From: Subtercola frigoramans
GTDB taxonomy: Bacteria; Actinomycetota; Actinomycetes; Actinomycetales; Microbacteriaceae
Reading direction: 5' to 3'
NCBI RefSeq assembly: GCF_016907385.1
Contig: NZ_JAFBBU010000001.1
Span: forward strand, 2,914,001-2,978,000
DNA: 64,000 bases
A program made the translations under genes and the position numbers. The stretch's first letter is position 1. The number at the start of each line of letters is the position of its first letter. The notes beneath the pieces were generated by a model. It had not been told where the DNA came from, did not search any database, and worked only from the letters and a program-made list of their open reading frames with translations. This document shows positions 32,237 through 53,781 of the stretch, in pieces.

Positions 32237-33487
32237 TCAGAAGTGAGTGGACCCGTAGACCGACGCGACCGGCGCAAGCAGAACGCGAACGCGAAGGGCC
32301 GCGTTCGGAGTGTGTTGCACGAGCTGCCCTGCCGCGGCAAGCGTCACCGCGTCGACACCGCCAAGGTAGAGCGAGCCGAGCGTTGGCGCCTCGACAGAGA
32401 CGTCGGGTGCGGCCGAATCGTCGCGAGTCACCGTCGCCCGACCGTCCGCCACGGCGAGCCGGTACGTTCCGTCGGCGTAACCCAGAGCATCCGTGACCTG
32501 CAGAACCATCGACCCTGAACCGACATATGCCCGCGCCTCGAATGCCGCCACGACGTCGAGTACGCGAATCCACAGCCAATCTTCGAGCCCCGTCAGCGCG
32601 AGCGAACGCCAGTCGGCAACCGCCCAGCGCAGCGGATCGTCGGCAGGTGCGGCCTCCCACTCGATGCGTTCGACCAGGTCGACGGATGCGAGAAACTCCC
32701 ACAGGCCCAGATACGCGTTGTCGTCTGCTGCCACGAGATCGATCACCTCGAGTGTGTGCGGCGCTGTGTCCCATCCCTTGAACAGGTACGACACGTAACC
32801 GTCGACCTGCCCGGCCTCGTCGTAGTGCGCAGCCGCATAGACGCCCGGGTTCGCGTCGTCTTTCTCGGTGGCCGCGCCCATGACACGGTTCCAGGTCGCT
32901 GCGTGGCGATCGACCGAGCCGGGATGCGCCGCGTGGAAGGCCGCGAACACCTTCGGGCCCAGGGTGGTGAGGTCGGCGGCCTCGATCAACTCGCACCGGC
33001 CGCGGGGTTCGCCGAGCATCCGGAACCGCGTGTCAGTGGTGAGGGCGACGTGGCTGACCCAGGTCGCAACGCCGAAGCCGAACCGCCGGTAGATCGTGGC
33101 CTCCGACACCGTGAGGGCAGCAATCGCCATGCCCGCGGCGGCAGCCCCACGCAAATGGTCGGTCATCATGCGGCGCAGAATGCCGTTGCGGCGGTGGGTG
33201 GGCCGCACGGTGACGTTGGAGACGAGGCTGACCGGCAGAAGCGTGTTCGGCCCGACGTTCAGGGTGCTTTCGAAGGCGGAGAACGTCGCCACCAGCTCGT
33301 CGCCGCGGTAAGCGCCGGTGAGTTGGCGTCGGTCTGTGACGAGATGGTCGGCCGTCCGCGCAAGCTGCTCGTCGGTCGCTCGCGTGTCGTGAAAACCGCG
33401 GCGTTCGGCCTGGATCCAGGTATTCGTCCCCGGGTCGGCGGCCGCGGCGGGGAAGGTTCGGAAGCTGTAATCGTCGGTGGAGCCCAT
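32237..33487 (-). CDS. Eis-like GNAT N-acetyltransferase
   Basis: This 416-residue protein has the three-part Eis architecture: an N-terminal GNAT domain with Val-Thr-Val-Arg-Pro-Thr-His-Arg-Arg-Asn-Gly-Ile-Leu-Arg (acetyl-CoA pyrophosphate loop), a second degenerate GNAT half, and a C-terminal SCP2-like domain. It ends in a C-terminal Phe, matching the free carboxylate that acts in catalysis in Eis. It probably acetylates amines, possibly aminoglycosides. The start at 33487 is chosen because homologous sequence begins there, although the frame is open to 33637. The RBS is weak. Confidence 0.88.
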   Translation of the reverse strand: MGSTDDYSFRTFPAAAADPGTNTWIQAERRGFHDTRATDEQLARTADHLVTDRRQLTGAYRGDELVATFSAFESTLNVGPNTLLPVSLVSNVTVRPTHRRNGILRRMMTDHLRGAAAAGMAIAALTVSEATIYRRFGFGVATWVSHVALTTDTRFRMLGEPRGRCELIEAADLTTLGPKVFAAFHAAHPGSVDRHAATWNRVMGAATEKDDANPGVYAAAHYDEAGQVDGYVSYLFKGWDTAPHTLEVIDLVAADDNAYLGLWEFLASVDLVERIEWEAAPADDPLRWAVADWRSLALTGLEDWLWIRVLDVVAAFEARAYVGSGSMVLQVTDALGYADGTYRLAVADGRATVTRDDSAAPDVSVEAPTLGSLYLGGVDAVTLAAAGQLVQHTPNAALRVRVLLAPVASVYGSTHF

Positions 33488-33599
33488 GGTTCTAAGGTAG
33501 CGGGGCGCCCGCGTCGCGCAGCTCTGCCGCCTCGGTATCACCGAGCATCTAGCTCCGGATGCTCGACAACTGCCCTGGCGGATACGAATGTTCGCCGAA

Positions 33600-35159
33600 C
33601 TATTCCGCGGCGGCAGCAACCTTCGCCGCGACGTCAAGAAACGACGGCTGATCGCCCGATGCCAATGGAGGGCCCGGAAACGGTGGGTCGGGAAGCTCCC
33701 ACACTTCGCCGACCCGGAGAATGCGTAGGTGTATGCCTTCGATCGCGGCGACCCCCGAATCGACTATCGCATTTGTCGCACGAAGGTACCTATCTGCCGA
33801 CTCCAGACTGCTGAACTCACCAGTGGCAACCCAATGTTGAGCACGCTCCAGTACGCGATACAGCGTCTCTACGCCGTTTCCCGCCGTCGCCCTGGTCAAC
33901 CCAGACAGGTACTCATTGCGAAGAACTGTGGGAATGATGATCCGATGCATGTTGTGCGGCACGAGTTCACCGTTCATCGCAACCCGAGCCGAGCGACCGT
34001 TACCGTCGACGAACGGATGCACTTCACTGACCATGAACATCACGTACGCCGCGCGCTGAAAGGGGTCAGTCAGCGCCTGCCCTTCCTCCCATCCCGCGCG
34101 CAGGGTGCCGGGAACCTGCGCCGGTTCAACGAACCTCGTCATGCCGGCCTGATTGGCTTGGACTTTCCACTGGCCCGGGAGCTTGTCTGGGTGGGCGGCC
34201 ATCATCACGCGGTGGCGGTCTCGCAGAGCATCCATAAACTCGTCTGCAATCGTGAATTCCTGAGACATCTCTGCGTGAGACGAGACGATCTCCCACGTGG
34301 AGCGAATGTCGTGGGCATCTTCAGGTTTTCCCACATCGGCATCGTCGAATACGACACGTTTCGCCTCATCGACGGTCAAGGTTGACCCTTCGATGTAGTT
34401 CGAAAAGTACGCCTCGTAAAAGGGCACGTACGACGAGCGAGCGACATCGTCGACAAATCGTTGCACTAGCGGCATGCGCTGCAGATCGGCGGCGACCTGG
34501 CGAAAGAGCGCAACACGAGCAGAATCGAAGCTTTCACCTCGTTGCGCTGCACTCAATGCTCGCGATCCGGTCGCTACGGTTGGCCCAAGCCCGCGGGCTG
34601 CGTCGACGTACCTGCGAATCGCCGCCACGGCGATGGTATTCGCGTCACGTGAGATCTCATCGAGCATGTTGTCGATCTGGCGAGGAGTAGAGGTTGTGAC
34701 GATCTGGGCAACCTTGTCGTGTAGTTCGTCCATCGTCAGCCGACGGTTGATGGCGGCAGGGCGGCCCCTCTGCTCGGCGTTGTCGATGAGCGCACGGGTT
34801 CGACTCGATCCGAACAGTTGACCAGACCTGTCAAGTGGCACGTCATCAGACCGACGGTTCTCCGTTCGGCCGTCTGGATAGACCGTCAACCCGGGCAGTA
34901 CAAGCGGGGATCGGCTCGGATGCGATACGAACAGTCGACCGGCGATCGGTCGCAGATCGAAGGCGCTCCGGTCTGCAATGACAGCGGTAGGCAACATCCG
35001 CCCGACGATCTCTCGCCAGTGCCGCTCGACGACCTTCTCCAGACTGTCCCGAATTTCGTCGGTCCATACCCCTCGAGCTACGGGGACGATGTTCCCGCTG
35101 GCGATCCGACGAGCACGCGCGCTCGCAGAGCTGAACGCATCTGCGAATAAGATAGCCAC
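33600..35159 (-). CDS. Fic family protein with N-terminal AbiEi-like regulator domain
   Basis: This 519-residue protein has a Fic domain with the active-site loop HPFVDGNGRSAR (His381), intact for AMP-transfer chemistry. Its own inhibitory helix Ser-Asn-Tyr-Ile-Glu-Gly (Ser253, Glu257) makes it a class II, self-inhibited Fic. Residues 1 to about 110 look like a winged-helix AbiEi-type antitoxin domain: Ala-Arg-Arg-Ile-Ala-Ser-Gly-Asn-Ile-Val-Pro-Val-Ala-Arg-Gly-Val-Trp and a following Ala-Asp-Arg-Ser-Ala strand. A GTG start follows GGAG. Four operator-like repeats lie immediately upstream, which supports DNA binding by the N-terminal domain and autoregulation. The domain call is by pattern only. 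Confidence 0.82.
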   Translation of the reverse strand: MAILFADAFSSASARARRIASGNIVPVARGVWTDEIRDSLEKVVERHWREIVGRMLPTAVIADRSAFDLRPIAGRLFVSHPSRSPLVLPGLTVYPDGRTENRRSDDVPLDRSGQLFGSSRTRALIDNAEQRGRPAAINRRLTMDELHDKVAQIVTTSTPRQIDNMLDEISRDANTIAVAAIRRYVDAARGLGPTVATGSRALSAAQRGESFDSARVALFRQVAADLQRMPLVQRFVDDVARSSYVPFYEAYFSNYIEGSTLTVDEAKRVVFDDADVGKPEDAHDIRSTWEIVSSHAEMSQEFTIADEFMDALRDRHRVMMAAHPDKLPGQWKVQANQAGMTRFVEPAQVPGTLRAGWEEGQALTDPFQRAAYVMFMVSEVHPFVDGNGRSARVAMNGELVPHNMHRIIIPTVLRNEYLSGLTRATAGNGVETLYRVLERAQHWVATGEFSSLESADRYLRATNAIVDSGVAAIEGIHLRILRVGEVWELPDPPFPGPPLASGDQPSFLDVAAKVAAAAE

Positions 35160-35173
35160 GCTTTACTCCGGTC

Positions 35174-35297
35174 AGTACTCTGCGTAATTAGGGCCCCGAG
35201 AAGTCGGATCGGTTACTTCTCTGCATAAATACTACCGCCCTTCGGTCACTTGTCTGCATAAAAGTAGGGGCAGCGACTACTTTCCCGCGTAAAAGTC
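35174..35297. repeat. Four 19-bp operator-like direct repeats upstream of the AbiEi-Fic gene
   Basis: Copies begin at 35174, 35215, 35248 and 35279. They share the core TCTGCRTAA, with consensus ACTTSTCTGCATAAAAGT; the outer ACTT and AAGT are complementary. Centre spacings are 41, 33 and 31 bp, close to whole helical turns, so proteins would bind one DNA face. They lie 15-140 bp before the GTG at 35159. Confidence 0.65.
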
Positions 35298-35320
35298 TCG
35301 GCTTCGATGGCGGAGCGTCC

Positions 35321-36342
35321 TTAGAAACCGAAACGTGGAATGAACCGCCCCAGGTACTCCCCCAGCCCCTCATCCTGCACGAACACGTACGTCCCCCGAA
35401 TCCCGCGCGTCAGCAGCACCGCATACACATTGCGAACAAAACGCAGCAGGTCCTCGTCGCTGTACACCACCCCGAGCTGGCGGTTGTTCTCCTTACCCTT
35501 CGTATCGAAGTACGACCCCCGATCGACGAACAGCTGCCCAGCGACCGGGTCGTACCGCAGATCCCGCCCGATGATCACCCCGGCATAGTTCAGGTCGTAC
35601 CCCTGCACCGTGTGAATCGACCCGACCTCCTCAAGCGACCCCGGCGACGCGATCCAGTCGGTCTGCGTGCTGTTCCACCGCAGCTGCACCCCATCGATCT
35701 CGATGTCGAACGCGGCGCGATCGCCGCGGCTCTTCCACTCCCACGCATGCCCGGCAAGAAGACGCGAAAGGCCCACCTCAACATCCCGCGCCCTGACCGC
35801 CGCCTGCATCGCCGCAACGCTGTCGAACATGCGAAAGTCGTACCCCTCGAAGTCCTGTGGATGCACAGCCTCACCCAACACGAACGCCGACGTGTGACCC
35901 CCGCCGAGCATCCGCCTCACATACCCGACGTAGTCGTCGCCAGCAGCAACCCGCATTTGCGACATCAGCGGATACAACCGCCCACCAGCCCGAGCCGACC
36001 CCACCAACTCCTCGAGCAACTCCGAAGGAACATCCGCCGGCCGAACGCTCTGCGCAGCATCCACCAGAACGATCTGATGCCGACTGCGCGCCTTGATCCA
36101 GTCGAGCTGGGTCTTCGACGTGTCATCGCTGCCGAACAGCGTCTCCGTGATCTCACGAAACTTGCGGTTCTGCACCCCCGACGACTCATTCGCCCGCTGA
36201 TTGAGCCGATGCGCCTCATCGACGAGCAGCAGATCGAAGACCTTCTCGCTCTCCCCGACCTCGAACGCCGTCATCACCATGTCAGGATGCAACCCCGGCG
36301 TCTTTCGAAACACTTTCTTGATCGACTCCCGCAACGACTGCT
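35321..36342 (-). pseudogene. 3' part of a split DUF2075 helicase-like gene
   Basis: This is the C-terminal half of a GIY-YIG/DUF2075 superfamily-1-like NTPase. The frame starts inside the left 121-bp repeat and contains Walker B (Leu-Leu-Leu-Val-Asp-Glu-Ala-His-Arg), Val-Asp-Ala-Ala-Gln-Ser-Val, Ser-Gln-Met-Arg (motif IV-like), His-Thr-Val-Gln-Gly-Tyr-Asp (motif V) and a final Val-Leu-Leu-Thr-Arg-Gly-Ile-Arg-Gly-Thr (motif VI) region. A TAG lies in frame just above the first possible start (TTG at 36334), so it has no proper start. Walker A is in the other fragment at 40041-40943. Alone it cannot be an ATPase. Confidence 0.88.
36222..36342. repeat. Left 121-bp direct repeat (DUF2075 duplication)
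   Basis: This segment matches 40048-40168 at 119 of 121 positions. It codes for the Ser-Ile-Lys-Lys-Val-Phe-Arg-Lys to Walker B stretch of the DUF2075 protein. One mismatch changes Lys to Arg; the other is silent. Confidence 0.95.
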
Positions 36343-36352
36343 ACCGCAAGAG

Positions 36353-36811
36353 TCACGCCGGTCGAACATAGAGGTAGCGACTAACTACTCGAGTGGGCGA
36401 CGAGACGCCACTGACGATCGTCTCTGGCGCGAGCGTCGCCGACTCTCCCGAAAGGTCGAGTTCGATACTCACGCCCCCGTTCGCAAACGCGGCCGGTGAC
36501 ACGCATGCTGCCGCCGCAGATGGATGATCGGCAGCTCTAATCGCAACGAGACAGATATTGCCGCTCGAGTCGACGGCCGCCCAATAACGAGCCTCACCCG
36601 AGTCGCCAACGAATCTCGAACTCGACAGATCTGCCCGCGCCTCAAATCCGACCAGACCCGGCAGAGCGTCTTGGTCATCCGCGGGTTCACTGAACAGCGG
36701 GAGCGCTCGCTGAGCATCGGTTTGTGATGAAGCACATCCCGTCAACCCGGCCAGGAGTACCGCAGTTCCCAAACGCAGTGCCAGCGGAGCCCGACCAGTC
36801 AACCGCAGCAC
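36353..36811 (-). CDS. Hypothetical lipoprotein, paralogue of the 36936 protein
   Basis: This 152-residue protein has a lipoprotein signal (Leu-Ala-Gly-Leu-Thr-Gly-Cys near residue 26). Its core is Tyr-Trp-Ala-Ala-Val-Asp-Ser-Ser-Gly-Asn-Ile-Cys-Leu-Val, then Ala-Ala-Ala-Cys-Val-Ser-Pro-Ala-Ala-Phe-Ala-Asn-Gly-Gly. The same pattern, with both cysteines, occurs in the divergently encoded protein at 36936. A GTG start is used. It lies just inside the left repeat. No function is recognisable; a surface-exposed or immunity-like role is possible but unproven. Confidence 0.7.
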   Translation of the reverse strand: MLRLTGRAPLALRLGTAVLLAGLTGCASSQTDAQRALPLFSEPADDQDALPGLVGFEARADLSSSRFVGDSGEARYWAAVDSSGNICLVAIRAADHPSAAAACVSPAAFANGGVSIELDLSGESATLAPETIVSGVSSPTRVVSRYLYVRPA

Positions 36812-36935
36812 CTACCCGCCCTCTCATCACCCACATCAGAAAAACTTCGTCACTTCGTTGATTAATTCTCAGCTTAGGGTTTAGGGTTCATCCGGGTCAA
36901 CTCAGCGCCCGCCAGCACAATGGAAAGGTTCAACG

Positions 36936-37574
36936 ATGAATCCAGAATCCCTCGAGCAAACACCCGCCAGGAACACCTTCAGCAGACGAAAGGCCGCCAT
37001 TGCCGCTTCGCTGTGTGGAGTAGCGCTCACCGCGGTAGTCTCGTTGGCACCTTCAGCCGTTTCGGCATCCTCGCCAGACCCGGTCGAGACCTGGAAGCCT
37101 GTTCTTGGTCTCATTGCGACATCTCAGGGTCAGCTGGATCATCTGCCGAGTTACCTCGTCTCGGGCGAGCAGGCGTTCGAGAGTGTCGATTTCTCGACGA
37201 CTCACGCGCTCGGCTCGACAAACGGCACGAAGCTCTGGGCGGCACTCAGCCCTGACGGCAGACTCTGCGTGATTGTTGACATGAATGACTCGGTGCAACT
37301 TGCTGGTCTGAGTTGCAGCACTCCTGAAGAGTTCGCGACAGCGGGCCTGGGCATACAGGTCGCCGATCGTTCAAAGGCGGTGCAGGCATACCTCCTCCCC
37401 GACGGCTACGTGAATTCCTCTCATCCAGAACTGATTCCTGTCGGCACGAATGTCGTAGTCGCCGACCCCTATGCCGGCCAAGCCAACAAACTGACACTCA
37501 GCCCTGGCCAGAATTCCGCGCCAGCCAGCGCGCCCATCACGCTCCTGGCGTTTCCGGCTCCGGAGGCGTTCTAG
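36936..37574 (+). CDS. Hypothetical secreted/membrane-anchored protein
   Basis: This 212-residue protein has a cytoplasmic N-terminus with Arg-Arg-Lys, one membrane or signal segment (about residues 20-44, ending Ala-Val-Ser-Ala) and an external domain. The domain has Leu-Trp-Ala-Ala-Leu-Ser-Pro-Asp-Gly-Arg-Leu-Cys-Val-Ile and Leu-Ser-Cys-Ser-Thr-Pro-Glu-Glu-Phe-Ala-Thr-Ala-Gly, which match the lipoprotein encoded divergently at 36353-36811. GGAAAGG precedes the ATG by seven bases. It is the first gene of a three-gene run with two further secreted proteins. Function unknown. Confidence 0.75.
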   Translation: MNPESLEQTPARNTFSRRKAAIAASLCGVALTAVVSLAPSAVSASSPDPVETWKPVLGLIATSQGQLDHLPSYLVSGEQAFESVDFSTTHALGSTNGTKLWAALSPDGRLCVIVDMNDSVQLAGLSCSTPEEFATAGLGIQVADRSKAVQAYLLPDGYVNSSHPELIPVGTNVVVADPYAGQANKLTLSPGQNSAPASAPITLLAFPAPEAF

Positions 37575-37578
37575 ATCA

Positions 37579-37950
37579 ATGACTCGACGACACACAAGCT
37601 CAATCGTTCCCGCTTCCTGCATTGCAGCGTTGGCAATAACGGCAGCGCTCTTCGGCGCCGGCTCGTCGCTCTCTGCTGCTGCGAGCGGCAGATCGAACTA
37701 CTATTCGGGCTCGAGCTTCTACAACGAGACGCACTTCACTAATCGGGTAGCAACGACCGGTGGAATCGTGGGCGTCGACGGCGGAGGCCTGATCGCCCGC
37801 TTCACCACGCAGGGATGGGGCTCCGCAAGCGGGGTCGGCTTCGTGGAGGCGACTCATTCGCGCGTCTCGAACACGCGTCAGTACTGCATGTGGACCCTCG
37901 GCGGCTACATCGCTGGCTCTGCCACTCTCGACTGCGAATACAAGAACTAG
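37579..37950 (+). CDS. Small secreted protein, two-cysteine family (copy 1)
   Basis: This 123-residue protein has a Sec signal peptide (Arg-Arg, hydrophobic stretch, Ala-Ala-Ala-Ser-Gly around residue 35). The mature part of about 85 residues is rich in Gly, Ser, Thr and Tyr. It shares with the next gene the pattern Tyr-x-Ser-Gly, Asn-Glu, Thr-Gly-Gly, His-Ser-Arg-x-x-Asn, Tyr-Cys-x-Trp and Leu-x-Cys-x-Tyr, so the two cysteines probably form a disulphide. It starts five bases after the preceding stop. No known toxin or enzyme motif is present. Confidence 0.75.
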   Translation: MTRRHTSSIVPASCIAALAITAALFGAGSSLSAAASGRSNYYSGSSFYNETHFTNRVATTGGIVGVDGGGLIARFTTQGWGSASGVGFVEATHSRVSNTRQYCMWTLGGYIAGSATLDCEYKN

Positions 37951-37959
37951 GAGACTCTT

Positions 37960-38337
37960 ATGCCAAAAAACGCCAGCACTTCGACAGACCGCCAACGCAC
38001 AATCACGTCCCTTGCAGCGTCTCTAGTTGTTATTGCCTCGGTAGTCGGCGCGGTCCCTATGGCCGCCTACGCTTCATCTCAGTATTGGAGCGGTTACACC
38101 ATCGAGAACGAGATCAAGTCCCCTGGGCATCCAAGCATCACGGGAGGAACCGGCACCGAGTACGCAACGCTCCTCTACTCGAATGTCACCACGTCGGGCT
38201 ACGGCACCGTGACGTCCGGCAGCGGCGCCACGATTGTTCACTCACGAACGACGAATCTGCATTACTGCCAGTGGCGTGACGAGCTCGATATCTTCGTCGG
38301 AGGCACGAACCGACTCACCTGTTCGTACTTCGGGTGA
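37960..38337 (+). CDS. Small secreted protein, two-cysteine family (copy 2)
   Basis: This 125-residue protein has a signal peptide (hydrophobic residues about 17-35, Ala-Tyr-Ala-Ser cleavage region) and a mature domain paralogous to the preceding gene, including His-Ser-Arg-Thr-Thr-Asn-Leu-His-Tyr-Cys-Gln-Trp and the terminal Leu-Thr-Cys-Ser-Tyr. AGGAG lies before the ATG, nine bases after the previous stop. The pair arose by duplication and divergence. A bacteriocin-like or surface role is possible, but neither is shown by the sequence. Confidence 0.75.
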   Translation: MPKNASTSTDRQRTITSLAASLVVIASVVGAVPMAAYASSQYWSGYTIENEIKSPGHPSITGGTGTEYATLLYSNVTTSGYGTVTSGSGATIVHSRTTNLHYCQWRDELDIFVGGTNRLTCSYFG

Positions 38338-38388
38338 CTAGGGCAAGCAGACGAATCAGGGGACGCTAGGCGACGAAAGAGCCGCTCC

Positions 38389-39696
38389 CTAATGTTCGCC
38401 GCTCGAGTCATTCTGCTCGGTCAGTTCCATGGTGTTCGCCGGCTTCTTCTTCGATTTGAACAGCCCCGCAACACCTCCGCCGACTGAGCCAGCGGCACCG
38501 GCGATCGCGCTGCCGGCACCCTTGACGGCAGTGAGGGCTCGAGGCTCATCGGGTATGCCGTCTCCGTCGATATCGATGCTCTGAAAGGAACGCCCAACAG
38601 TGCCAGCCGCAGTTGCGACTCCGGTGCTAGCCGCAACGGCAGTGTTGGCGACGCCTCCTCCGATACTGGTGGCAGTGCCAGTGATCCAGGTTCCAGTGGA
38701 CTTTGCAGCCTCCTCCAAAGCCGCGATTGCACGATTCGGCTCGCTGTCGACGTCGTCCTCAAGCACTTCCTTCTCAGGCACAATCAGGTGCGCAGGGAAT
38801 ACATCGGGCGCAGGAGTGAATGCCGCCCGCGAAGCTGCGACAACGTCTCGGCCGAACACAAATCGCGCAACGCCCCCCACGACAGCGCCAACCCCATATT
38901 CGACGGCCGCCTGTTGTTTTCCTGAAAGGCCAGCGCGCACCGTGTCCAGTTGACCTGTCTGAATGGTGCGAACGAGACTCTGCGCAGCCCCCGCCGGCAA
39001 GGTGTCGGCCAGCGTATTTGCCCAATGCGACCAGTCTTCGCGGCCATCGGCGATGCTCTTGCTCAGGCTGACTGTATTGTCCGTCGAGACAGTCGCGACG
39101 TCCGCAGCCATGATGGCAATCTGCTCCTGACCGACTCGTTCGTTTGACAGCCCGTAGACGAGGGTGAAGGCCTGATCGTGATCCAGGTTCATTCCGTGGA
39201 TGTCGGCGATGGCAAGCGCGAAGACCGCTGTAATCTCGAACTGCAATTGCTGGTCTCCCGCGGGGATGAGCGCCACTACTCGCTGAGCCCCGGTTGTCGC
39301 GACACCCAGCGCCATGCCTTTGGCTGCCGCCTTCGCCGCCTCTTTCGCCGCGCTTTTCGCAACCTGCTTGCCTGCCTGTTTGGCAGCATGCTGGCCTGCT
39401 GCTTTTGCACCGCTCGCCGCGGCCCCACCTAAAGGAATGAGGCTGATATCGATATTTGCGGCAATTGCTCCGGCAGCGATGACAGCGCCAGCTGTGCTGA
39501 TCGAGGTGGTGTAGTGGCGTTCGAGTATCCGGATGATCTCGGCAGGGGTTGCTTCCGGATTCCGTCGGCGTAGCCGCATGACGTACTTTCGTGCGATCGA
39601 GTGTCTGGCACCGATCGCCTTCGCGATCTCGCGAACCGCGTCGTCTTCGACGAGTTCCGCTTCAAACACGACATCATCGCTGTCGATATCAGACAC
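38389..39696 (-). CDS. Large Ala/Gly-rich hypothetical protein with HTH-like N-terminus and Ca-loop
   Basis: This 435-residue protein starts at a GTG preceded by GGGGGA (an upstream ATG at 39729 has no RBS). Residues 15-60 contain a helical, Arg-rich segment (His-Ser-Ile-Ala-Arg-Lys-Tyr-Val-Met-Arg-Leu-Arg-Arg-Arg). Hydrophobic Ala/Gly-rich helices follow, some amphipathic with Lys every three to four residues. Near residue 385 an Asp-Ile-Asp-Gly-Asp-Gly-Ile-Pro-Asp-Glu loop resembles an EF-hand/dockerin-like calcium site. The charged tail has Lys-Ser-Lys-Lys-Lys. It may be a peripheral membrane protein. It is convergent with the secreted-protein genes. Confidence 0.7.
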   Translation of the reverse strand: MSDIDSDDVVFEAELVEDDAVREIAKAIGARHSIARKYVMRLRRRNPEATPAEIIRILERHYTTSISTAGAVIAAGAIAANIDISLIPLGGAAASGAKAAGQHAAKQAGKQVAKSAAKEAAKAAAKGMALGVATTGAQRVVALIPAGDQQLQFEITAVFALAIADIHGMNLDHDQAFTLVYGLSNERVGQEQIAIMAADVATVSTDNTVSLSKSIADGREDWSHWANTLADTLPAGAAQSLVRTIQTGQLDTVRAGLSGKQQAAVEYGVGAVVGGVARFVFGRDVVAASRAAFTPAPDVFPAHLIVPEKEVLEDDVDSEPNRAIAALEEAAKSTGTWITGTATSIGGGVANTAVAASTGVATAAGTVGRSFQSIDIDGDGIPDEPRALTAVKGAGSAIAGAAGSVGGGVAGLFKSKKKPANTMELTEQNDSSGEH

Positions 39697-39833
39697 TGTT
39701 ATTCCCCCTGTATTGCGCGCATCCAGCATCGGACGACTATCGCCGCATCATTTACGCGTAACGCGATCAACCCTTATTGTGTGAGTTCGCTCACCCAGTC
39801 TCCCCGACAGCGGGACTTTCCCCAACATTTCGA

Positions 39834-40037
39834 TCAGGCAGGGGCACCGCCAGCGACTAGTCCGGCGATCTCCACAACGTGGGGAACGAGGTCATCGAGG
39901 TGCTTGATCCCAACGTGCCGGCGCTCGCTGACGCGCTCCCCGACCTTGGTCGTAGTGTTGAAGATCTTGCGTTCGGAGACGCCAGTCAATGCCGTCGTCC
40001 TAGCGAAAGGATCGCATGGCTTCGCATCATCTGTCAT
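39834..40037 (-). CDS. Small hypothetical ORF at the right end of the insert
   Basis: This is a 67-residue frame with ATG at 40037, ten bases inside the right repeat boundary. The composition is plausible for a protein (mixed charged residues, C-terminal hydrophobic helix) but no RBS and no recognisable domain are seen. It may be a gene fragment cut during insertion. The rest of the gap 39697-40040 shows nothing I can support. Confidence 0.3.
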   Translation of the reverse strand: MTDDAKPCDPFARTTALTGVSERKIFNTTTKVGERVSERRHVGIKHLDDLVPHVVEIAGLVAGGAPA

Positions 40038-40040
40038 CCG

Positions 40041-40943
40041 CTATTCAACGAGCAGCAGATCGAAGACCCTCTCGCTCTCCCCGACCTCGAACGCCGTCAT
40101 CACCATGTCAGGATGCAACCCCGGCGTCTTTCGAAACACCTTCTTGATCGACTCCCGCAACGACTGCTGCGGCACCACCAGCCCGAACGACAGCCCCGCC
40201 AAAAGCTCCGGATACCCCCCAACGAAGAACTCCGCGAACAACGAATCACTGTCGAACTCCTGCGCCGGCGGTGCCTGCTGAATATCGACCAGCAACTTCA
40301 GCATGTAGATCGCAATCACGGTCTTGCCGGTGCCCGGCTCCCCCTGAATCACCGACGTACTCGTCGCCGTCGACTCCAGATCAGCGAACAGCCCCTCGAG
40401 AATCCCCTCGACCGCGACCGCCTGATCCTGCGTCAAAGCCTTGAACGGCGACAGCTTGAACAGGTCACTGTTCTCGATCTCAGGAATGCTCCGGATGAAC
40501 ACACCATCGCTCTTCAGCTGCTCAAAAACCTGCTCGAAACTCTCCCGGTACCGCTCCCGCTCGTAATACTCCGACTCGGTGATGCCGTCGTTGCGATTGA
40601 GCACCTGATACACGCCATCGCCCGCGAGCATCCGGATCAGGTACGACTCCAAATCAAGACACACTGACTTGTTGAACGTCTCATCGATGATCACCCTCAC
40701 CGTCGTCAAGTGCTTCTTCGCGTCAGAGTCGAGGTGCTGACGTATCCGTGCAGCGGCGTTCAGCGATTCGCCGACATACACGTCGCTGACGTTTTGATTC
40801 CGGATGCTCGGCCGCCCTCGAACCGCACCCGCATTGTCGAGCACATAAACCACAGGCCAGTTCTTATTGCGGCGATCAAGCGGTGCCCAGGCGCTGATCT
40901 CTTCGCTCGTTAGCCCAAACGACGTGATGTCAAAGGGCGTCAT
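40041..40943 (-). pseudogene. 5' part of a split GIY-YIG/DUF2075 helicase-like gene
   Basis: This 300-residue fragment holds an N-terminal GIY-YIG-type nuclease domain (Pro-Val-Val-Tyr-Val-Leu and Asp-Val-Tyr-Val-Gly-Glu-Ser, about residues 28-65, with a downstream Leu-Glu-Ser-Tyr-Leu-Ile) and then Walker A GEPGTGKT near residue 201. It ends in Walker B: Leu-Leu-Leu-Val followed by Glu and a stop, exactly at the end of the right 121-bp repeat. The missing part is at 35321-36342. The start overlaps the MazG-like gene by 14 bases, so it is the second gene of that operon. Protein made from it would lack ATPase function but could keep the nuclease domain. Confidence 0.9.
40048..40168. repeat. Right 121-bp direct repeat (DUF2075 duplication)
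   Basis: This is the second copy of the segment at 36222-36342, with 119 of 121 bases identical and in the same orientation. Identity ends sharply at both edges: flanking bases on the outer side are the native gene, those on the inner side are insert. Confidence 0.95.
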
Positions 40944-41250
40944 ACTTCGCGCTTCGCCCTCGTGACTTCTCGACCGGATACTTCTCGCGCGTGATGGCCA
41001 GCTTGTCGCGCACTATCTGATCTGGATCCGCCCCGATCCGCTGCGCAAGAAGCATGCAATATGTCAAAACGTCAGCCAGCTCTTCACGCACACGCTCGAC
41101 GTCAGCCTCAGCGCTCCATTGGAAGCACTCCAGCAACTCCCCTGCCTCGATCGCGATGCTCTTCGCGAGGTTCTCCGGGCTGTGGAACTGCGCCCAGTCC
41201 CGTTCTGCGACAAACGCGGCGAGCTCGTCCTGAAGCGACCAAACGACCAT
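40930..41250 (-). CDS. MazG-like nucleotide pyrophosphohydrolase
   Basis: This 106-residue all-alpha NTP pyrophosphohydrolase has the MazG/RS21-C6 pattern: Phe-His-Ser-Pro-Glu-Asn-Leu-Ala-Lys-Ser-Ile, then Glu-Ala-Gly-Glu-Leu-Leu-Glu-Cys-Phe-Gln-Trp (Mg-binding glutamates) and Glu-Glu-Leu-Ala-Asp-Val-Leu-Thr-Tyr. It would convert (d)NTPs to monophosphates. The gene overlaps the DUF2075 gene start by 14 bases, an association seen in other bacteria near defence genes. Here the partner is broken, while MazG itself appears intact. Confidence 0.9.
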   Translation of the reverse strand: MVVWSLQDELAAFVAERDWAQFHSPENLAKSIAIEAGELLECFQWSAEADVERVREELADVLTYCMLLAQRIGADPDQIVRDKLAITREKYPVEKSRGRSAKYDAL

Positions 41251-41358
41251 GCCGTCACACTAGCAGCGCAGCGCGCCCGCCTAACCCTGGGCCTGGCCCG
41301 TGAATGCAACGGCTAGCGGGACGTACTCACCAACGGCTCAAGGCAAGACTCGATACAT

Positions 41359-41562
41359 CTACTCGTTCCCGGACCTCTTTATAGCCATTGCGACGCCGTG
41401 TGGTCCGAGACCAGTCAATTCCTGAACCTGAACCCACGTCGCACCGTCGGCTAGCGCTGAACGCATTCGTTCATCTCGGATTCTCATGAGCCGCTCACGC
41501 TCCTGAGTTGCTTTTCGAAGAGCCTCAACCGCCTCGCGGAGTAGGCGAACCGATTCTTCCAT
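41359..41562 (-). CDS. Small HTH-like protein
   Basis: This 67-residue protein has a charged coiled-coil-like N-terminal half (residues 1-38, rich in Arg and Glu). A short helix-turn-helix-like second half follows (Gly-Ala-Thr-Trp-Val-Gln-Val-Gln-Glu-Leu-Thr-Gly-Leu-Gly). It is divergent from another small gene across a promoter with a 6-bp palindrome. It may be the regulator of that pair. No RBS is evident; a TATAGT six bases before the ATG suggests a leaderless message. Confidence 0.55.
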   Translation of the reverse strand: MEESVRLLREAVEALRKATQERERLMRIRDERMRSALADGATWVQVQELTGLGPHGVAMAIKRSGNE

Positions 41563-41592
41563 GAAGCCACTATACAGACTGAGAAATTATCA

Positions 41593-41607
41593 CTATAATC
41601 GTTATAG
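41593..41607. promoter_or_regulatory. Palindromic operator and -10 element between divergent small genes
   Basis: CTATAA-TCG-TTATAG is a perfect 6-bp inverted repeat. It overlaps TATAAT (41594-41599), a consensus -10 for the gene at 41630, with a weak TATACA -35 17 bp upstream (41571-41576). A repressor here would block RNA polymerase. Confidence 0.6.
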
Positions 41608-41629
41608 CATCAACTAAGAGGAGCTACAA

Positions 41630-41851
41630 ATGTCTGCGATGCCGAGCGGCACCTTCGCGCTACCACCCGTCGATGATCTTCAGACGCTGGCATTCGAGCT
41701 TCGCAAAGATCATTTCGAGCTCATCGACGGGCTATTCCCCCTCGAAGTCGTAGCCCATGTCATGGCGGCAATCATCGCTCTCGAGGCAATCGTTCAGATT
41801 TTGAGGGCTCAAGGCTGGCCAGAAGAATCTGCAAGTGAGTCAAAAGCCTGA
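41630..41851 (+). CDS. Small hypothetical protein upstream of the R-M genes
   Basis: This 73-residue protein begins with a strong AAGAGGAG RBS. It has no known domain: a Pro-rich start, an acidic helix and a hydrophobic helix (about residues 40-62). It precedes the methyltransferase gene by 90 bases on the same strand and could be co-transcribed. It does not look like a typical C-protein, since no helix-turn-helix is visible. Confidence 0.6.
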   Translation: MSAMPSGTFALPPVDDLQTLAFELRKDHFELIDGLFPLEVVAHVMAAIIALEAIVQILRAQGWPEESASESKA

Positions 41852-41941
41852 GCCCAGATTGGTCGAATTTGGGCTTGCCCGAAGCGCCTGCCAAGGCGGT
41901 CTGCCATTCCAAGTTACAGTGTCAGAAGTACCTGGCATGGT

Positions 41942-42955
41942 GTGCTGGTGATCAAAATTACGGAGCAAGAATTGACGTACTCGAGCCTCAGCGTTCTAGA
42001 AATCTGCGCGGGAGCGGGCGGCCAGTCTTCCGGTCTCGAAAAAGCCGGATTTCGTCACGAGCTCGCGGTCGAAATCGACAAAGATGCTGCCGCCACACTC
42101 CGATTGAATCGCCCTGAATGGGACGTCCACGAGGGCGACGTCCGCGAAGTTGACGGAAAGAAGTATCGAGGAATTGATCTTCTCGCCGGTGGCGTTCCTT
42201 GCCCGCCGTTCAGCATGGCCGGCAAACAGTTGGGTGCAGACGACGAGCGAGACCTCTTCCCTGAAGCCATCCGCTTAGTTGGAGAAGCTAGGCCAGCCGC
42301 GGTGATGCTTGAAAACGTACGCGGACTTGCATCTCCACGGTTCACTCCGTACCGCGAATCGATCCTCGATCAGTTGTCCAAGCTTGGTTACCGGGCAGAC
42401 TGGCAACTTCTTTATAGTTCGGAGTTTGGGGTGCCGCAGTTGCGCCCGAGATTCATTCTTGTGGCTATAAAGGGCGCAAAATTTGACGAATTCGAATGGC
42501 CCGGTGCGGTTGGAAGTCCAAAGCTGGTGGGAGAGACTTTGCTCCCTTTGATGAAAGCCAACGGATGGCAAGGCGCAAATGCGTGGGCGAAACGAGCTGC
42601 CAGCATTGCCCCCACTGTCGTTGGCGGATCCAAAAAACACGGTGGCGCGGACCTAGGCCCGACTCGGGCAAAAAAGGCTTGGCTCGCTCTAGGCATTGAC
42701 GGAAAGGGGATCGCGGATGAAGCTCCGTCGGCTGAGCATCCCGCCACCCACATTCCTCGCTTGACTAACCCAATGGTTGCGCTCGTCCAAGGCTTTGACC
42801 CTGAATGGTCATTCGCTGGAAGGAAAACTTCGACGTATCGCCAGATTGGAAACGCATTTCCACCTCCTGTAGCACGCGGGGTGGGAACATCCATCGGGCG
42901 TGCTCTCGGAGTTACCGCGCTGAAGACCGAACGCGCATTGCGCATAGTCGCCTAG
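41942..42955 (+). CDS. DNA (cytosine-5-)-methyltransferase of a type II R-M system
   Basis: This 337-residue m5C methyltransferase has motif I (Cys-Ala-Gly-Ala-Gly-Gly), motif IV with the catalytic Pro-Cys (Cys87), motif VI Glu-Asn-Val-Arg-Gly, motif VIII Gly-Val-Pro-Gln-Leu-Arg-Pro-Arg and motif X Gln-Ile-Gly-Asn-Ala-Phe-Pro-Pro-Pro-Val-Ala. The target-recognition region between VIII and X is short. A GTG start (41942 or 41948) is used. It protects host DNA against the NaeI-like nuclease encoded 22 bases downstream, so its site is probably GCCGGC; this is inferred from the partner. Confidence 0.93.
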   Translation: MLVIKITEQELTYSSLSVLEICAGAGGQSSGLEKAGFRHELAVEIDKDAAATLRLNRPEWDVHEGDVREVDGKKYRGIDLLAGGVPCPPFSMAGKQLGADDERDLFPEAIRLVGEARPAAVMLENVRGLASPRFTPYRESILDQLSKLGYRADWQLLYSSEFGVPQLRPRFILVAIKGAKFDEFEWPGAVGSPKLVGETLLPLMKANGWQGANAWAKRAASIAPTVVGGSKKHGGADLGPTRAKKAWLALGIDGKGIADEAPSAEHPATHIPRLTNPMVALVQGFDPEWSFAGRKTSTYRQIGNAFPPPVARGVGTSIGRALGVTALKTERALRIVA

Positions 42956-42977
42956 CCGCGGTCGGCAGGACGTTACA

Positions 42978-43910
42978 GTGCAGCTCGACGATCTCGGAGG
43001 CGATCCTGGCCTTGAGTTTGTGATTGACGCATTCAAACGAGCCGATCCGACTGGCGAACGCGCTGGGCGCATTTTTCGTGCCACCTTCGATCAGCTTTAC
43101 GATGGGCAGCGGACCGGCCGATACCGCTGGGATCAATTGTTCAAGACTGAGAAGACCCACTATGGGACATTGATTGAAATCAACCTTCGTCGGGAGTTCG
43201 ACGACATTCTCGATGACGGCGAGGTTCTCGACTTTAGGGTCTCTGACTACGAGCTGGACTGCAAGTACTCGTTTCGGTTCGGCGGCTGGATGATACCGCC
43301 AGAGTGTTTTGACCAGCTCCTGCTGGTAGCAACCGCGAACGATCAGACATCTGAGTGGGGGCTTGGGGTTGTGCGAGCTTCCGAGGCGCATCGTCGACGC
43401 GGCGTAAATAGGGACGGCAAAAGTGGGCTCAGCAAGCTTGGCACCACAAATATTCATTGGCTGCATTGGGGCGCGGAGCTCCCGCCAAACGTCTTACTCC
43501 AAGTGCCGGTTGAGGTACAAGATGCCATCTTTCGACCGACATCTGGGCAACAACGAGTGAACCAGCTATTTCGGCTCGTGTCAGGGCGCAGGATAGGGAG
43601 AAATACAGTCGCGACGGTAGCGCAACAAGATGATTACATGAAACGTGTCCGAGAAAATGGCGGCGCCCGCTCCGCTCTCGCGCCCGAGGGTTTCATCATT
43701 CCAGGCGGCGATTTTGAAAGTCACCGAATGATTGCTCGGCGTTTGGGCGCCGAGGTCCCACAGCCAGGAGAATTCGTCAGCATACGGCTCGTACCCGCAA
43801 GTGAAGATGATCCGTTCGTGGTCGAGCTGGATGGCATGCGTTGGCGCACCGGCGGCGCAAATGAGTGGAAAGGATCTCGCGCGCCTTCGCTACCCACGAC
43901 GCGACGCTAG
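42978..43910 (+). CDS. NaeI family type IIE restriction endonuclease
   Basis: This 310-residue protein aligns along its length with NaeI: Asp-Gln-Leu-Tyr-Asp-Gly-Gln-Arg-Thr-Gly-Arg, Lys-Thr-Glu-Lys-Thr-His-x-Gly-Thr-Leu-x-Glu-Ile-Asn-Leu, the catalytic Asp-Cys-Lys (Asp94, Lys96), Trp-Met-x-Pro-Pro-Glu, and in the C-terminal effector-DNA (Topo) domain Thr-Val-Ala-Gln-Gln-Asp-Asp-x-Met-Lys-Arg-Val-Arg. NaeI needs two GCCGGC copies, one as allosteric effector. The active site is complete. A GTG start follows the methyltransferase gene closely, so the pair form one unit. Confidence 0.93.
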   Translation: MQLDDLGGDPGLEFVIDAFKRADPTGERAGRIFRATFDQLYDGQRTGRYRWDQLFKTEKTHYGTLIEINLRREFDDILDDGEVLDFRVSDYELDCKYSFRFGGWMIPPECFDQLLLVATANDQTSEWGLGVVRASEAHRRRGVNRDGKSGLSKLGTTNIHWLHWGAELPPNVLLQVPVEVQDAIFRPTSGQQRVNQLFRLVSGRRIGRNTVATVAQQDDYMKRVRENGGARSALAPEGFIIPGGDFESHRMIARRLGAEVPQPGEFVSIRLVPASEDDPFVVELDGMRWRTGGANEWKGSRAPSLPTTRR

Positions 43911-44000
43911 GCACATCGTTTTTGCTGCGAGAACTTCCGTACTGAAATTCGACAAAGCGATTCCTGTGTGCCGGAAGTTCCTGAAACAATTCGATGTGAT

Positions 44001-44216
44001 TCAGGAGCGGAACCCAACATAGTCAACCTTGAGTACCTGGTTGACGAACTGCCCCTTCGACGAAGACCTGACGAACTCTTCCCACACATGCTCTGGGACA
44101 CCTGGATATCTGTAGGCGCCGGATGACCGAAAAACAACCCAGACTTCCTCATACTGTTGGTCATAACCAATAGCTTCTACGTTGGAGCTTTCGGGAGTCG
44201 AGATCATCTCAGGCAT
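44001..44216 (-). CDS. KTSC domain protein
   Basis: This 71-residue protein matches the KTSC fold pattern: Ser-Asn-Val-Glu-Ala-Ile-Gly-Tyr-Asp, Val-Trp-Val-Val-Phe-Arg-Ser-Ser-Gly-Ala-Tyr-Arg-Tyr, Val-Pro-Glu-His-Val-Trp, and Ser-Ser-Lys-Gly-Gln-Phe-Val-Asn-Gln. KTSC domains occur alone or attached to lysyl-tRNA synthetase-like and other enzymes, and their biochemical role is not settled. The start is two bases after the HerA stop, so it is the third gene of the SIR2-HerA operon. Confidence 0.85.
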   Translation of the reverse strand: MPEMISTPESSNVEAIGYDQQYEEVWVVFRSSGAYRYPGVPEHVWEEFVRSSSKGQFVNQVLKVDYVGFRS

Positions 44217-44218
44217 GT

Positions 44219-46042
44219 CTAACCTTGTCCTTCAATTCGTTTCGCGAGTTCTTGCGAGCGCCAGCCGACTATAGCCTCGGTATAGCCAGCGGTGGTCGGC
44301 CGCTGCAAGAGCCAACTTTCGGGTAACTGTGGATCGTCGCCAACAGGGCGGTTCGGTGCACGCGAGACGCGAACACGCGAAGGTATCTGAAGCGCCTCGC
44401 CCAAAATTAGGCACTCGCCGGTTCGAAGCGAAGGCAGCAAGGCGGTCAGGTTGCCCAGATCATCGGGTACCGTGGAGGAAACTGCCGATCTGTCTGCCGC
44501 GTTTGTCAACCGGAGAGCGATCATCGAGCCGCACTGACTTAATATGGTGGGGTCGATGTCAGACGGCCTCTGCGTCACCACCATCAGACCGACTCCGTAT
44601 TTTCTTCCTTCCCTGGCGATTCGGTTGCAGATGCGAGAGCTCGTTGTGCCTGACCCGATCGGCACAAACCTATGCGCCTCATCCAATACGACCAGTAGCG
44701 GCTGGTTCTTTCCGCCAACGTCGAGGTTCATTCCCCAGAAGAGGGCCTCGTAGATGACCGTCAGCATAGCTCCTACGACCGTGTCCAAGACCTCCGGCGG
44801 GAGACCAGACACATCCAGCACGGTAACTGCATTGTCATGTCCAATCCAGGCTGCGATGAGACCGTCGAGGTCGTTGGTTATCCGGCCCTCCAGGCTTGCG
44901 TGATAGCCGTCCGAGCTACCAAACATGAAGGAAAAGCGTGGATCGAGAAGCCTGTTCCGAAGAAACTCGAGTTGTCGTGCAATCCCACGACGTTGCTTGT
45001 TCAGAAAGGGCGAACCACTTCCGATAGCTGCAGCCGGAAACTCTGCGGCCAGCAATCGTTCGGCATCGCCAGCGTGTAACGCGATGGATTCTGATGAAGG
45101 CGTCTGACTCGGATCGGTAAATGTCACATCTTCGTTGCGTCTCAGCTCGAACCATAACCTTCGCAAGCTGAAGGGAATCGGCGAGTCGGCGCTAACTGTT
45201 TCATCGGGAGGAGGCACATCCAATAGGGCAGCAGCTTCCAACTTCAAGCCTCGTACTTTGTCTCGAATGTACTCTGAGACCGACTCACTCATTGGCCCGA
45301 ATGACAGCCGACTCATTTCCTCGAAGCCAAGTGCCCAATAGGGAACACGTAACCCACCAACACTTCCCACCTGGGCTGACAGCTTAGTGAATGACCCGGG
45401 CAACAACGCGGAGGAGTATTCGCCGTGAGGATCGATGACGAGAACTCTTGCCGAGAGCAATGGACTGCTTGTTATACCTCGAAGCAAAACAGCCATCAAA
45501 TTTGACTTGCCTGACCCTGTTGAACCCACCACACACGCGTGTCTGGTGACTAACGAAGCAAGGTCAATTTCAGCTGGGATGTCGGGCGCGCCAGCGATAT
45601 GGCCGATTGATATGCTCGACCCGCTCAATTGCTTGCCTGAATAGATAGTTCGCATGTCGTCCGACGTGACGAGGTGTACTTCGTCACCGACCGTCGGATA
45701 TTGGCCGACCCCTCGTTCGAATTTTCTCTCTACAGACTCGCCGAATAGCACTATCGTCATCCATCGGTATCCGGAAAGCTCAGAGTCGGACATTGCCGAG
45801 CCATGTTGGTTATCCGTGCCCGGTCGCAACAAGTCGGCTCCAACCTGGGTACATACTCCAAAGAGTTGCGTGTAACCGAGCGGGATACGAACAAAATTAC
45901 CTATCTGTCCTATTCGATGCGAGGCGCCATCCACCATCACGAGCGTGGTGGGGACATCTCGAAGGCGAACCAAGACCTCTGAGCCTCGAACAGAACTCAC
46001 CTGGCCGATGAAGGTCGCAGAGGCAAGACGTTGCGCCTTCAT
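44219..46042 (-). CDS. HerA-like ATPase (DUF87) of a SIR2-HerA defence system
   Basis: This 607-residue hexameric-type ATPase has an N-terminal beta-barrel (HAS-barrel-like, residues about 1-110), Walker A GSTGSGKS near residue 172, Walker B Val-Val-Leu-Asp-Glu-Ala-His-Arg-Phe, and Arg-Ile-Ala-Arg-Glu-Gly-Arg-Lys-Tyr-Gly-Val-Gly-Leu with Thr-Gln-Arg-Pro (arginine finger and sensor). All motifs are intact. It overlaps the SIR2 gene by four bases. In known SIR2-HerA systems the two proteins assemble and the complex combines nuclease/ATPase and NADase activity during phage attack. Confidence 0.92.
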   Translation of the reverse strand: MKAQRLASATFIGQVSSVRGSEVLVRLRDVPTTLVMVDGASHRIGQIGNFVRIPLGYTQLFGVCTQVGADLLRPGTDNQHGSAMSDSELSGYRWMTIVLFGESVERKFERGVGQYPTVGDEVHLVTSDDMRTIYSGKQLSGSSISIGHIAGAPDIPAEIDLASLVTRHACVVGSTGSGKSNLMAVLLRGITSSPLLSARVLVIDPHGEYSSALLPGSFTKLSAQVGSVGGLRVPYWALGFEEMSRLSFGPMSESVSEYIRDKVRGLKLEAAALLDVPPPDETVSADSPIPFSLRRLWFELRRNEDVTFTDPSQTPSSESIALHAGDAERLLAAEFPAAAIGSGSPFLNKQRRGIARQLEFLRNRLLDPRFSFMFGSSDGYHASLEGRITNDLDGLIAAWIGHDNAVTVLDVSGLPPEVLDTVVGAMLTVIYEALFWGMNLDVGGKNQPLLVVLDEAHRFVPIGSGTTSSRICNRIAREGRKYGVGLMVVTQRPSDIDPTILSQCGSMIALRLTNAADRSAVSSTVPDDLGNLTALLPSLRTGECLILGEALQIPSRVRVSRAPNRPVGDDPQLPESWLLQRPTTAGYTEAIVGWRSQELAKRIEGQG

Positions 46043-49559: not shown

Positions 49560-49799
49560 ATGAACAAGGCCGCTCTCAGTCGGCTCGCTATGGCGGTTCG
49601 AGCAGACTTTGAAGTGTCGCAGAACGAGCCGTTCGATCCAATGGAATGGTCAAAGGAAAACGGCATTCCCTTCATCTCAATTCGTGACTTCACCGCGGAT
49701 GCCGCTGCCTTGCGACGCTTTCTGGAAGAGAAGCCCCGAGTCTGGTCAGCGGCCCTCCTCCGGGATGGGCGAAGGCATTTAGTTATCTATAACCCTGAG
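49560..49799 (+). pseudogene. ImmA/IrrE metallopeptidase gene, 5' part (split by IS)
   Basis: The first 80 codons of an ImmA/IrrE-type protein run from Met-Asn-Lys-Ala-Ala-Leu to Val-Ile-Tyr-Asn-Pro-Glu. The frame then meets the IS end and stops two codons later (49805). Removing the IS and one CCTGAG copy joins Asn-Pro-Glu to Arg-Ser-Leu-Glu in the fragment at 51903, giving one 184-residue protein. The zinc motif lies in that second part, so this part alone is inactive. Confidence 0.9.
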
Positions 49800-49867
49800 T
49801 GTTAACGCCGACTGAAAACAGGGCCAGTACTGCCAACTGAAAACAGGGCCACCAACCACTATGGAAG

Positions 49868-51834
<1,967 letters not shown>

Positions 51835-51902
51835 ACAAACCACGTGGCCCTGTTTTCAGTTGGCAACCGTGGCCCCATATTGAGTTGGCGTTAACACCTG
51901 AG

Positions 51903-53156: not shown

Positions 53157-53528
53157 ATGGCTCGACGCTCGATTGTGAAGCAAGCGCAAGCACTGCCGCA
53201 AATCTATTGTTTGCGTCGCGCACAGCTCCGGACATCCATTCGCCTAGGTCTTGCACGCGGGAACGAGCAGACTGCGCCGGGCAAGAAGGGGCAGCGGAAG
53301 GCTCAAGTTGTGCCGTGGTGCGATGTTGTTTGCGACGGGGAGCTGGCGTCTAACGTTCTCGACAGCCTGGTTGAAGGTGACTATGTGGTTGTTGAGGGGG
53401 AACTGCGCGTGCATCGGTTGTATCCGGTTGACGATGGGCGCGACTCGGCGATGGTGTCGGTGCGCGCGGAGAGCGTGGGGCTCGACCTGCGGCGCGGGGT
53501 TGCGAAGTTTCTGCGGGTGGAGCGGTGA
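53157..53528 (+). pseudogene. Truncated single-stranded DNA-binding (SSB) protein
   Basis: The C-terminal 80 residues fit an OB-fold SSB: Arg-Leu-Gly-Leu-Ala-Arg-Gly-Asn, Val-Pro-Trp-Cys-Asp-Val-Val, Leu-Ala-Ser-Asn-Val-Leu-Asp-Ser-Leu-Val-Glu-Gly-Asp-Tyr-Val-Val-Val-Glu-Gly and Val-Gly-Leu-Asp-Leu-Arg-Arg-Gly. The first 35 residues are unlike the SSB N-terminal strand, and the acidic SSB tail is absent. It is probably a damaged copy left from a mobile element. The ATG at 53157 is only the first possible start. Confidence 0.55.
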
Positions 53529-53781
53529 GGGAGAGCTCATTCCGAAGGTGGGCGCCATCGTCTCGACGATTGAGCCAGTCATGCGGTATGCGTTCAACGA
53601 TCCCGGCGGAGTGCGAACCGCCGAAAGTTCAAGGCTGCGCTCAGTGCTGCGGGGCATCCGGTCGCTAAGCAGACGCTTGTGGAGAGAACATCCGCTCAGA
53701 CAAAGAATCGATAGATGCTCGACCCTTGCCCGGGGTGAGAGCTTATGATGGGAACGAGATCAGGATGAGGAGGTGGCACGA

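What the first reader, a model, noticed from the sequence alone, without database searches (positions are those of the whole stretch)
36222..40168. DUF2075 helicase gene split by a 3.7-kb insert between 121-bp direct repeats
The N-half (40041-40943) and C-half (35321-36342) of one GIY-YIG/DUF2075 gene lie 3.7 kb apart. Both ends carry the same 121-bp gene segment (119/121 identical), and removing the insert and one copy gives a single intact frame of about 600 codons. The break falls between Walker A and Walker B, so the enzyme is off while the insert is present. No recombinase is visible. The layout could allow RecA-mediated loss and gene restoration, making it a possible switch or an undescribed integrating circle.
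Basis: partly seen in the sequence, partly recalled or inferred. Interest (0 to 1): 0.78.

Follow-up and report, generated by a model that had tools for sequence, protein, structure and literature searches.

The report
Split helicase gene, recombination scar
In a Subtercola bacterium a helicase gene is cut in two by a 3.7-kb block of other genes that is bracketed by a short repeated piece of the helicase gene; related species carry similar broken and partly duplicated copies, so it looks like a scar of DNA exchange in a fast-changing region, not a dedicated switch.

Summary
The window (a Subtercola chromosome) carries the N-half (40041-40943) and C-half (35321-36342) of one GIY-YIG/PF09848 helicase gene, 3.7 kb apart, sharing a 121-bp segment (119/121). 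Without the block and one copy the frame is open for 599 codons. An uninterrupted gene, 93% and 88% identical in DNA to the two parts, lies in the same neighbourhood in relative G300.

The switch or new-circle reading gains no support. Of 12 Subtercola genomes, 6 have the helicase and 5 of these, the window included, carry extra truncated helicase pieces within about 10 kb, with different cargo, break points and repeat lengths. Repeats of at least 85% identity more than 1 kb apart number 14 in 210 kb of these islands and 0 in 400 kb of control regions. No tyrosine or serine recombinase lies in the window.

Best reading: an insertion-duplication (merodiploid) scar of acquired DNA, anchored by homology in the helicase gene, in a hypervariable defence island. 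Collapse of two tandem MazG-helicase modules is a serious rival. RecA-mediated loss of the block, restoring the gene, remains possible and untested. Ordinary in kind, mildly interesting for its recurrence.

The parts
40041..40943 (-). N-half of the GIY-YIG/PF09848 helicase, 300 aa, ends in a stop just inside the insert
   Evidence: 96% aa identical to the G300 protein over 300 residues
40048..40168 (.). repeat copy at the N-half
36343..40047 (.). insert (cargo block)
   Evidence: single copy in the genome
38389..39729 (-). EcsC-like protein, 446 aa
   Evidence: no Pfam match; 616 relatives, mostly called hypothetical, two of the 120 listed called EcsC family
37960..38337 (+). small exported-looking protein, 125 aa
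   Evidence: no relative but itself at E 1e-3; 31% identical to the next one
37579..37950 (+). small exported-looking protein, 123 aa
36936..37574 (+). exported-looking protein, 212 aa
   Evidence: distant relatives in 17 other family genomes of 299
36353..36811 (-). lipoprotein-like protein, 152 aa, ends 10 bp from the repeat
   Evidence: 28% identical to the 212-aa protein over 76 residues
36222..36342 (.). repeat copy at the C-half
35321..36342 (-). C-half of the helicase, frame open
   Evidence: PF09848 190 bits; 87% aa identical to the G300 protein
40930..41250 (-). MazG-like gene directly upstream; partner in the two-gene module
   Evidence: PF12643 70.6 bits; found beside the helicase in 28 of the 29 family loci L003-L031, not in L024; homology to G300 ends at 41268
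32237..33637 (-). GNAT acetyltransferase gene that marks the island edge
   Evidence: PF13527, PF17668, PF13530; 94-95% DNA identity in G300, G301, G286, G090

Best explanation
The split helicase is an insertion-duplication (merodiploid) scar. DNA acquired by the cell, carrying a cargo block joined to a stretch of the same helicase gene, recombined into the resident gene of a MazG-helicase module at the edge of a hypervariable defence island. This left the N-terminal part, the cargo, and an overlapping C-terminal part, with the 121-bp overlap as direct repeat. Shown: the two halves, the repeat, the uninterrupted gene in a relative in the same neighbourhood, and further cases of the same architecture in the genus. 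Inferred: that incoming DNA was paired by RecA at the helicase, that its other end joined by further homology or by end joining (a Ku gene is present), and that the helicase is now inactive. RecA could in principle delete the block again, as a passive consequence of any such repeat.
For: Repeat and frame. Uninterrupted gene with MazG in G300, about 5 kb from the same GNAT gene: 92.8% (w40045-41268) and 88.1% (w35336-36348) DNA identity. 5 of the 6 helicase-bearing Subtercola genomes (12 searched) have further helicase pieces: window 130 bp 96.2%; G153 424 bp 94.1% and 268 bp 88.4%; G299 197 bp 96.4%; G300 214 bp 90.7%, 151 bp 92.1%, 72 bp 81.9%; G301 446 bp 94.4%; all direct. G007 serves as empty site for G153: its gene end plus the stretch after it (743 bp) matches G153's second piece and what follows it, 92.5%, while G153's first piece is followed by 3.3 kb of cargo. 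G153's pieces are no closer to its own gene (94.3%, 88.9%) than to the G007 and G299 alleles (95.0/95.9%, 90.0/90.4%), so they are not recent copies of it. In the six Subtercola helicase loci none of 27 other ORFs of 300 aa or more has such a shard (my tally, the window's own N-half left out). Repeats of at least 85%: 16 in 209,898 bases of islands, 7 of them helicase, against 2 in 400,000 control bases; more than 1 kb apart 14 against 0. Ku gene present.
Against: The window's two copies differ at 2 of 121 sites and share a change not seen in G300, so they may be copies of one allele instead of resident plus foreign; G299's and G301's pieces also lean to their own gene. No donor molecule and no second genome with this cargo at helicase repeats was found. 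Outside Subtercola only L048 and L049, fetched because they had several matches, and one weak case (L147) were seen among 63 loci, so the preference may belong to the island and not to the gene. Other stretches of the islands are repeated too. Counting repeats of any identity, islands (24 direct in 210 kb) exceed controls (31 in 400 kb, 13 of them in one region) only slightly.
Confidence: 0.55

Rival explanations
1. Collapse of two tandem MazG-helicase modules: the N-half is the start of module 1, the C-half the end of module 2, the block is what lay between or moved in; two truncations happened to leave a 40-codon overlap.
For: G300 and G301 share an ABC-transporter block (3382 bp, 90.7%) that is followed, before the same GNAT gene, by remnants of a second module: helicase residues 14-72 and 230-302 in G300, MazG start and helicase C-end in G301. 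G153 has three helicase pieces and a duplicated flank (838 bp, 85%). A 100-bp MazG remnant lies next to the GNAT gene in G090, where no helicase was found.
Against: No second MazG remnant was found in window 26-64 kb. The two halves cover the gene once with a short overlap and both frames are open. The larger divergence of the C-half from G300 (87.9% aa against 96.3%) looked like two origins, but the intact metagenome protein P0122 shows the same contrast to G300, so it is no evidence.
Confidence: 0.28
2. A reversible, selected switch: RecA-mediated loss and regain of the block turns the helicase on and off in the population.
For: The frame is exactly restored on loss; 121 bp is enough for RecA (recalled); both frames are still open. 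RecA-driven copy-number switching between repeats is known in Burkholderia thailandensis (PMC9946442, abstract and outline read).
Against: The arrangement is not conserved: every other Subtercola case has another site, length and cargo. Loss would be one-way unless the circle comes back. No population data.
Confidence: 0.04
3. Site-specific or transposon-like element moved by a recombinase elsewhere in the genome.
For: The genome has 7 tyrosine- and 3 serine-recombinase hits. G301's N-part loses homology exactly at w40168, where the window's C copy begins.
Against: No recombinase in the window; no inverted repeats of 20 nt or more in 34000-42500; repeats in the genus have no fixed site or length.
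Confidence: 0.05
4. Assembly artefact.
For: A repeat longer than short reads could misjoin; the reads are not held.
Against: Single-contig genome; similar structures in other, independently assembled genomes; the insert carries genes that are single in this genome.
Confidence: 0.03

Closest known systems
Merodiploids made by natural transformation (Streptococcus pneumoniae; PMC3784515, abstract and passages read)
   Same: Partial duplication bordered by repeats that arises when imported DNA pairs at homologous stretches and crosses over unequally.
   Different: There the duplications span about 100-900 kb and were made in the laboratory; here a 121-bp gene segment surrounds other genes, and DNA uptake was not shown.
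Homology-facilitated illegitimate recombination (PMC3240628, start of abstract seen in a listing)
   Same: Foreign DNA enters with one end joined by homology and the other without.
   Different: That process was not shown here; the outer junctions of the acquired DNA are not known.
RecA-dependent duplication switch of Burkholderia thailandensis (PMC9946442, abstract and outline read)
   Same: Direct repeats let RecA gain or lose a segment.
   Different: There IS elements border a 208.6-kb region and both states coexist; here the repeat is a gene segment and only one state is known.
GIY-YIG/DUF2075 (PF09848, SLFN-g3) helicases with a MazG-like neighbour in Microbacteriaceae
   Same: Domain content and gene order of the module.
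   Different: In the window the gene is split; function of the module is not established (weak PADLOC matches only).

Membership tests
Insertion-duplication / merodiploid scar | other DNA flanked by direct repeats of a host gene segment | tested here: met
Insertion-duplication / merodiploid scar | uninterrupted homologue in the same neighbourhood of a relative | tested here: met
   G300
Insertion-duplication / merodiploid scar | a donor carrying cargo joined to a helicase stretch | tested here: inconclusive
   none found in family genomes, plasmids or phages
Insertion-duplication / merodiploid scar | dependence on RecA | not testable with these tools
   needs an experiment
Site-specific integrative element | recombinase gene in or beside the element | tested here: not met
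Site-specific integrative element | same attachment site in relatives | tested here: not met
   other break points in G153, G299, G300; G301 N-part ends at the edge of the window repeat
Transposon | terminal inverted repeats and short target duplication of fixed length | tested here: not met
   no inverted repeats, 121-bp direct repeat
Programmed RecA switch | arrangement conserved in relatives | tested here: not met
Programmed RecA switch | both states in one population | not testable with these tools
   no reads or cultures
GIY-YIG/PF09848 helicase | GIY-YIG domain and PF09848 domain in one frame | tested here: met
   the two halves hold one each; the uninterrupted G300 protein holds PF09848 (215 bits) with GIY-YIG just under cut-off (21.8 of 22.6 bits)

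The most novel reading that the evidence does not exclude
MazG-helicase modules in Subtercola act as portable homology, a landing pad through which defence and other cargo blocks are captured, excised as recombinase-free circles and re-inserted by the host's RecA alone; the window holds one such block where its excision would rebuild the helicase.
Probability: 0.12. Interest if true: 0.6.

Novelty: new member of a known kind. Interest (0 to 1): 0.3.

Why it matters
If the landing-pad reading were right, it would show how recombinase-free defence cargo can enter and leave genomes by ordinary homologous recombination, with one accessory gene as the shared address. As it stands it is a clear natural example of partial-gene merodiploidy in a defence island, with empty-site relatives and a control, and a warning that a split gene with direct repeats need not be a switch.

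Tried and rejected
(1) Two origins of the halves, from their different divergence to G300: dropped, because intact P0122 shows the same contrast. (2) Helicase-specific targeting across the family: not claimed; of 69 loci examined 8 had extra helicase pieces: 5 Subtercola, L048 and L049 (fetched because they had several matches) and a weak L147; 26 of 399 other ORFs of 300 aa or more also had some repeat, one of them the window's own N-half, the rest at 66-93% identity. (3) Cargo as a known mobile block: no match of w36100-40300 in plasmids or phages, EcsC-like protein not on plasmids, no genome contigs relative by pattern, though common by protein search. (4) A link of the EcsC-like gene with the helicase: near it in G031 and, as a distant relative, in G070, but of the 6 other family genomes with a strong match (over 300 bits) only G031 has a helicase match. 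(5) A defence label for the helicase: weak PADLOC matches only, 29 bits at best. (6) Literature: the library holds no paper with DUF2075 and defense, nor with Schlafen, GIY-YIG, bacteria and helicase together; the one hit for three of DUF2075, GIY-YIG, helicase, MazG lacks DUF2075. Searches gave nothing used.

Full report
What was checked. The repeat core is 36222-36342 and 40048-40168, 119 of 121 identical; the flanks with one copy give 599 codons including the stop and no internal stop. The N-half holds GIY-YIG and the P-loop, the C-half most of PF09848 with the DEAH-type motif (motif names recalled). The genome is one contig of 3,679,597 bases and the stretch 35321-40943 occurs in it once.

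The module. A MazG-like gene lies beside the helicase in 28 of the 29 family loci L003-L031. Of 299 family genomes 88 match the C-half; 72 of these 88 have a match above 300 bits in an open frame of 575-701 codons, a few marked with a stop (my count). In G300 the uninterrupted gene with MazG lies about 5 kb from the GNAT gene that borders the window's island (1.7 kb there), 92.8% and 88.1% identical over the two parts.

The pattern in the genus. Of 12 Subtercola genomes 6 have the helicase; 5 of these, the window included, have extra truncated pieces, G007 has not. Pairs by self-comparison: window 130 bp 96.2%; G153 424 bp 94.1% and 268 bp 88.4%; G299 197 bp 96.4%; G300 214 bp 90.7%, 151 bp 92.1%, 72 bp 81.9%; G301 446 bp 94.4%; all direct. 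Cargo between pieces differs: HD-CE and TPR proteins in G153, an Mrr_N/AAA protein and a HepT-like one in G299, an ABC transporter (label from sequence, recalled) in G300, a ThsA-like SIR2 protein and a ThiC-like piece in G301. G007 is the empty site for G153.

Where the pieces come from. G153's two pieces are no closer to its own gene than to the G007 and G299 alleles; G299's and G301's lean to their own gene; G300's are undecided. In the window each copy has one private change and both share one absent from G300, which fits a copy of its own gene or a conspecific donor.

Is the helicase special? In the six Subtercola helicase loci none of 27 other ORFs of at least 300 aa had a shard (my tally). 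In the wider islands other stretches are repeated as well. Repeats of at least 50 bp and 85% identity: 16 in 209,898 bases (11 slightly overlapping windows, 7 genomes), 7 of them helicase, against 2 in 400,000 bases of 20 control regions from two genomes; more than 1 kb apart, 14 against 0. The islands were picked for the helicase or the GNAT gene, so the helicase share is ascertained. Repeats of any identity hardly differ: 24 direct and 1 inverted in the islands, 31 direct and 4 inverted in the controls, 13 of the direct ones in one region. The process thus belongs to the island, with the helicase taking a large part.

Two ways to the same end. G300 and G301 share an ABC block with the same ends (3382 bp, 90.7%), followed by different remnants of a second MazG-helicase module before the GNAT gene. 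Tandem modules therefore probably existed in this clade, and collapse of two modules is a serious rival for the window. I had taken the larger divergence of the C-half as support for it, but an intact metagenome protein shows the same contrast. I keep insertion-duplication first because the halves cover the gene once, with a short, 98% identical overlap, open frames and no second MazG remnant.

Mechanism. Inferred: incoming DNA with cargo joined to a helicase stretch pairs with the resident gene through RecA; the other end joins by further homology or by end joining. The genome has Ku. Both routes are known in kind: unequal crossing-over of imported DNA in S. pneumoniae (PMC3784515, abstract and passages) and homology-facilitated illegitimate recombination (PMC3240628, start of abstract in a listing). 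Whether Subtercola takes up DNA was not tested.

Against a dedicated element or switch. None of the genome's 7 tyrosine- and 3 serine-recombinase hits lies in the window; no inverted repeats of 20 nt or more around the block; sites and lengths vary. One coincidence stays unexplained: G301's N-part loses homology at w40168, exactly where the window's C copy begins.

Cargo. An EcsC-like protein common in Actinobacteria and two pairs of small exported-looking proteins. No relation to the helicase was found: of the six family genomes with a strong EcsC-like match only G031 has a helicase nearby, intact.

Verdict. A real structure and an ordinary kind of event, notable for its recurrence in one gene of one genus. 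Loss of the block with repair of the gene is possible for any such repeat and is untested.

Noticed in passing
window 36353-38337: The insert encodes two pairs of small exported-looking proteins, alike within each pair (123/125 aa, 31%; 152/212 aa, 28% locally); the 125-aa one found no relative but itself.
   Followed up: partly
window 41942-47235: Defence cluster beside the module: cytosine methylase, NaeI-type endonuclease, HerA and SIR2 proteins; a methylase-NaeI pair (60% and 49%) also lies beside helicase fragments in L048.
   Followed up: partly
window 53227-53529: Stretch resembling an SSB-like gene (label by eye) that matches two or more places each in the islands of G300, G301 and G286.
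   Followed up: partly
L057 2743-17434: In G031 a MazG-helicase module sits between divergent direct copies (72-84%) of a multi-gene flank that includes EcsC-like genes.
   Followed up: partly
L081 8526-11906 and L082 10986-14366: ABC-transporter block with the same ends in two Subtercola genomes but different helicase or MazG remnants at its sides, in L082 within 3 bp.
   Followed up: partly
window 49799-51897: IS21-type istA/istB pair with 54-bp inverted ends, 83%.
   Followed up: no
window 33600-35159 and 53861-54562: Two Fic-domain proteins in the island, one next to the helicase C-half.
   Followed up: no
L082 7884 (window 40168): G301's helicase N-part stops matching at the very base where the window's C-side repeat copy begins; chance or a shared break point.
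   Followed up: partly
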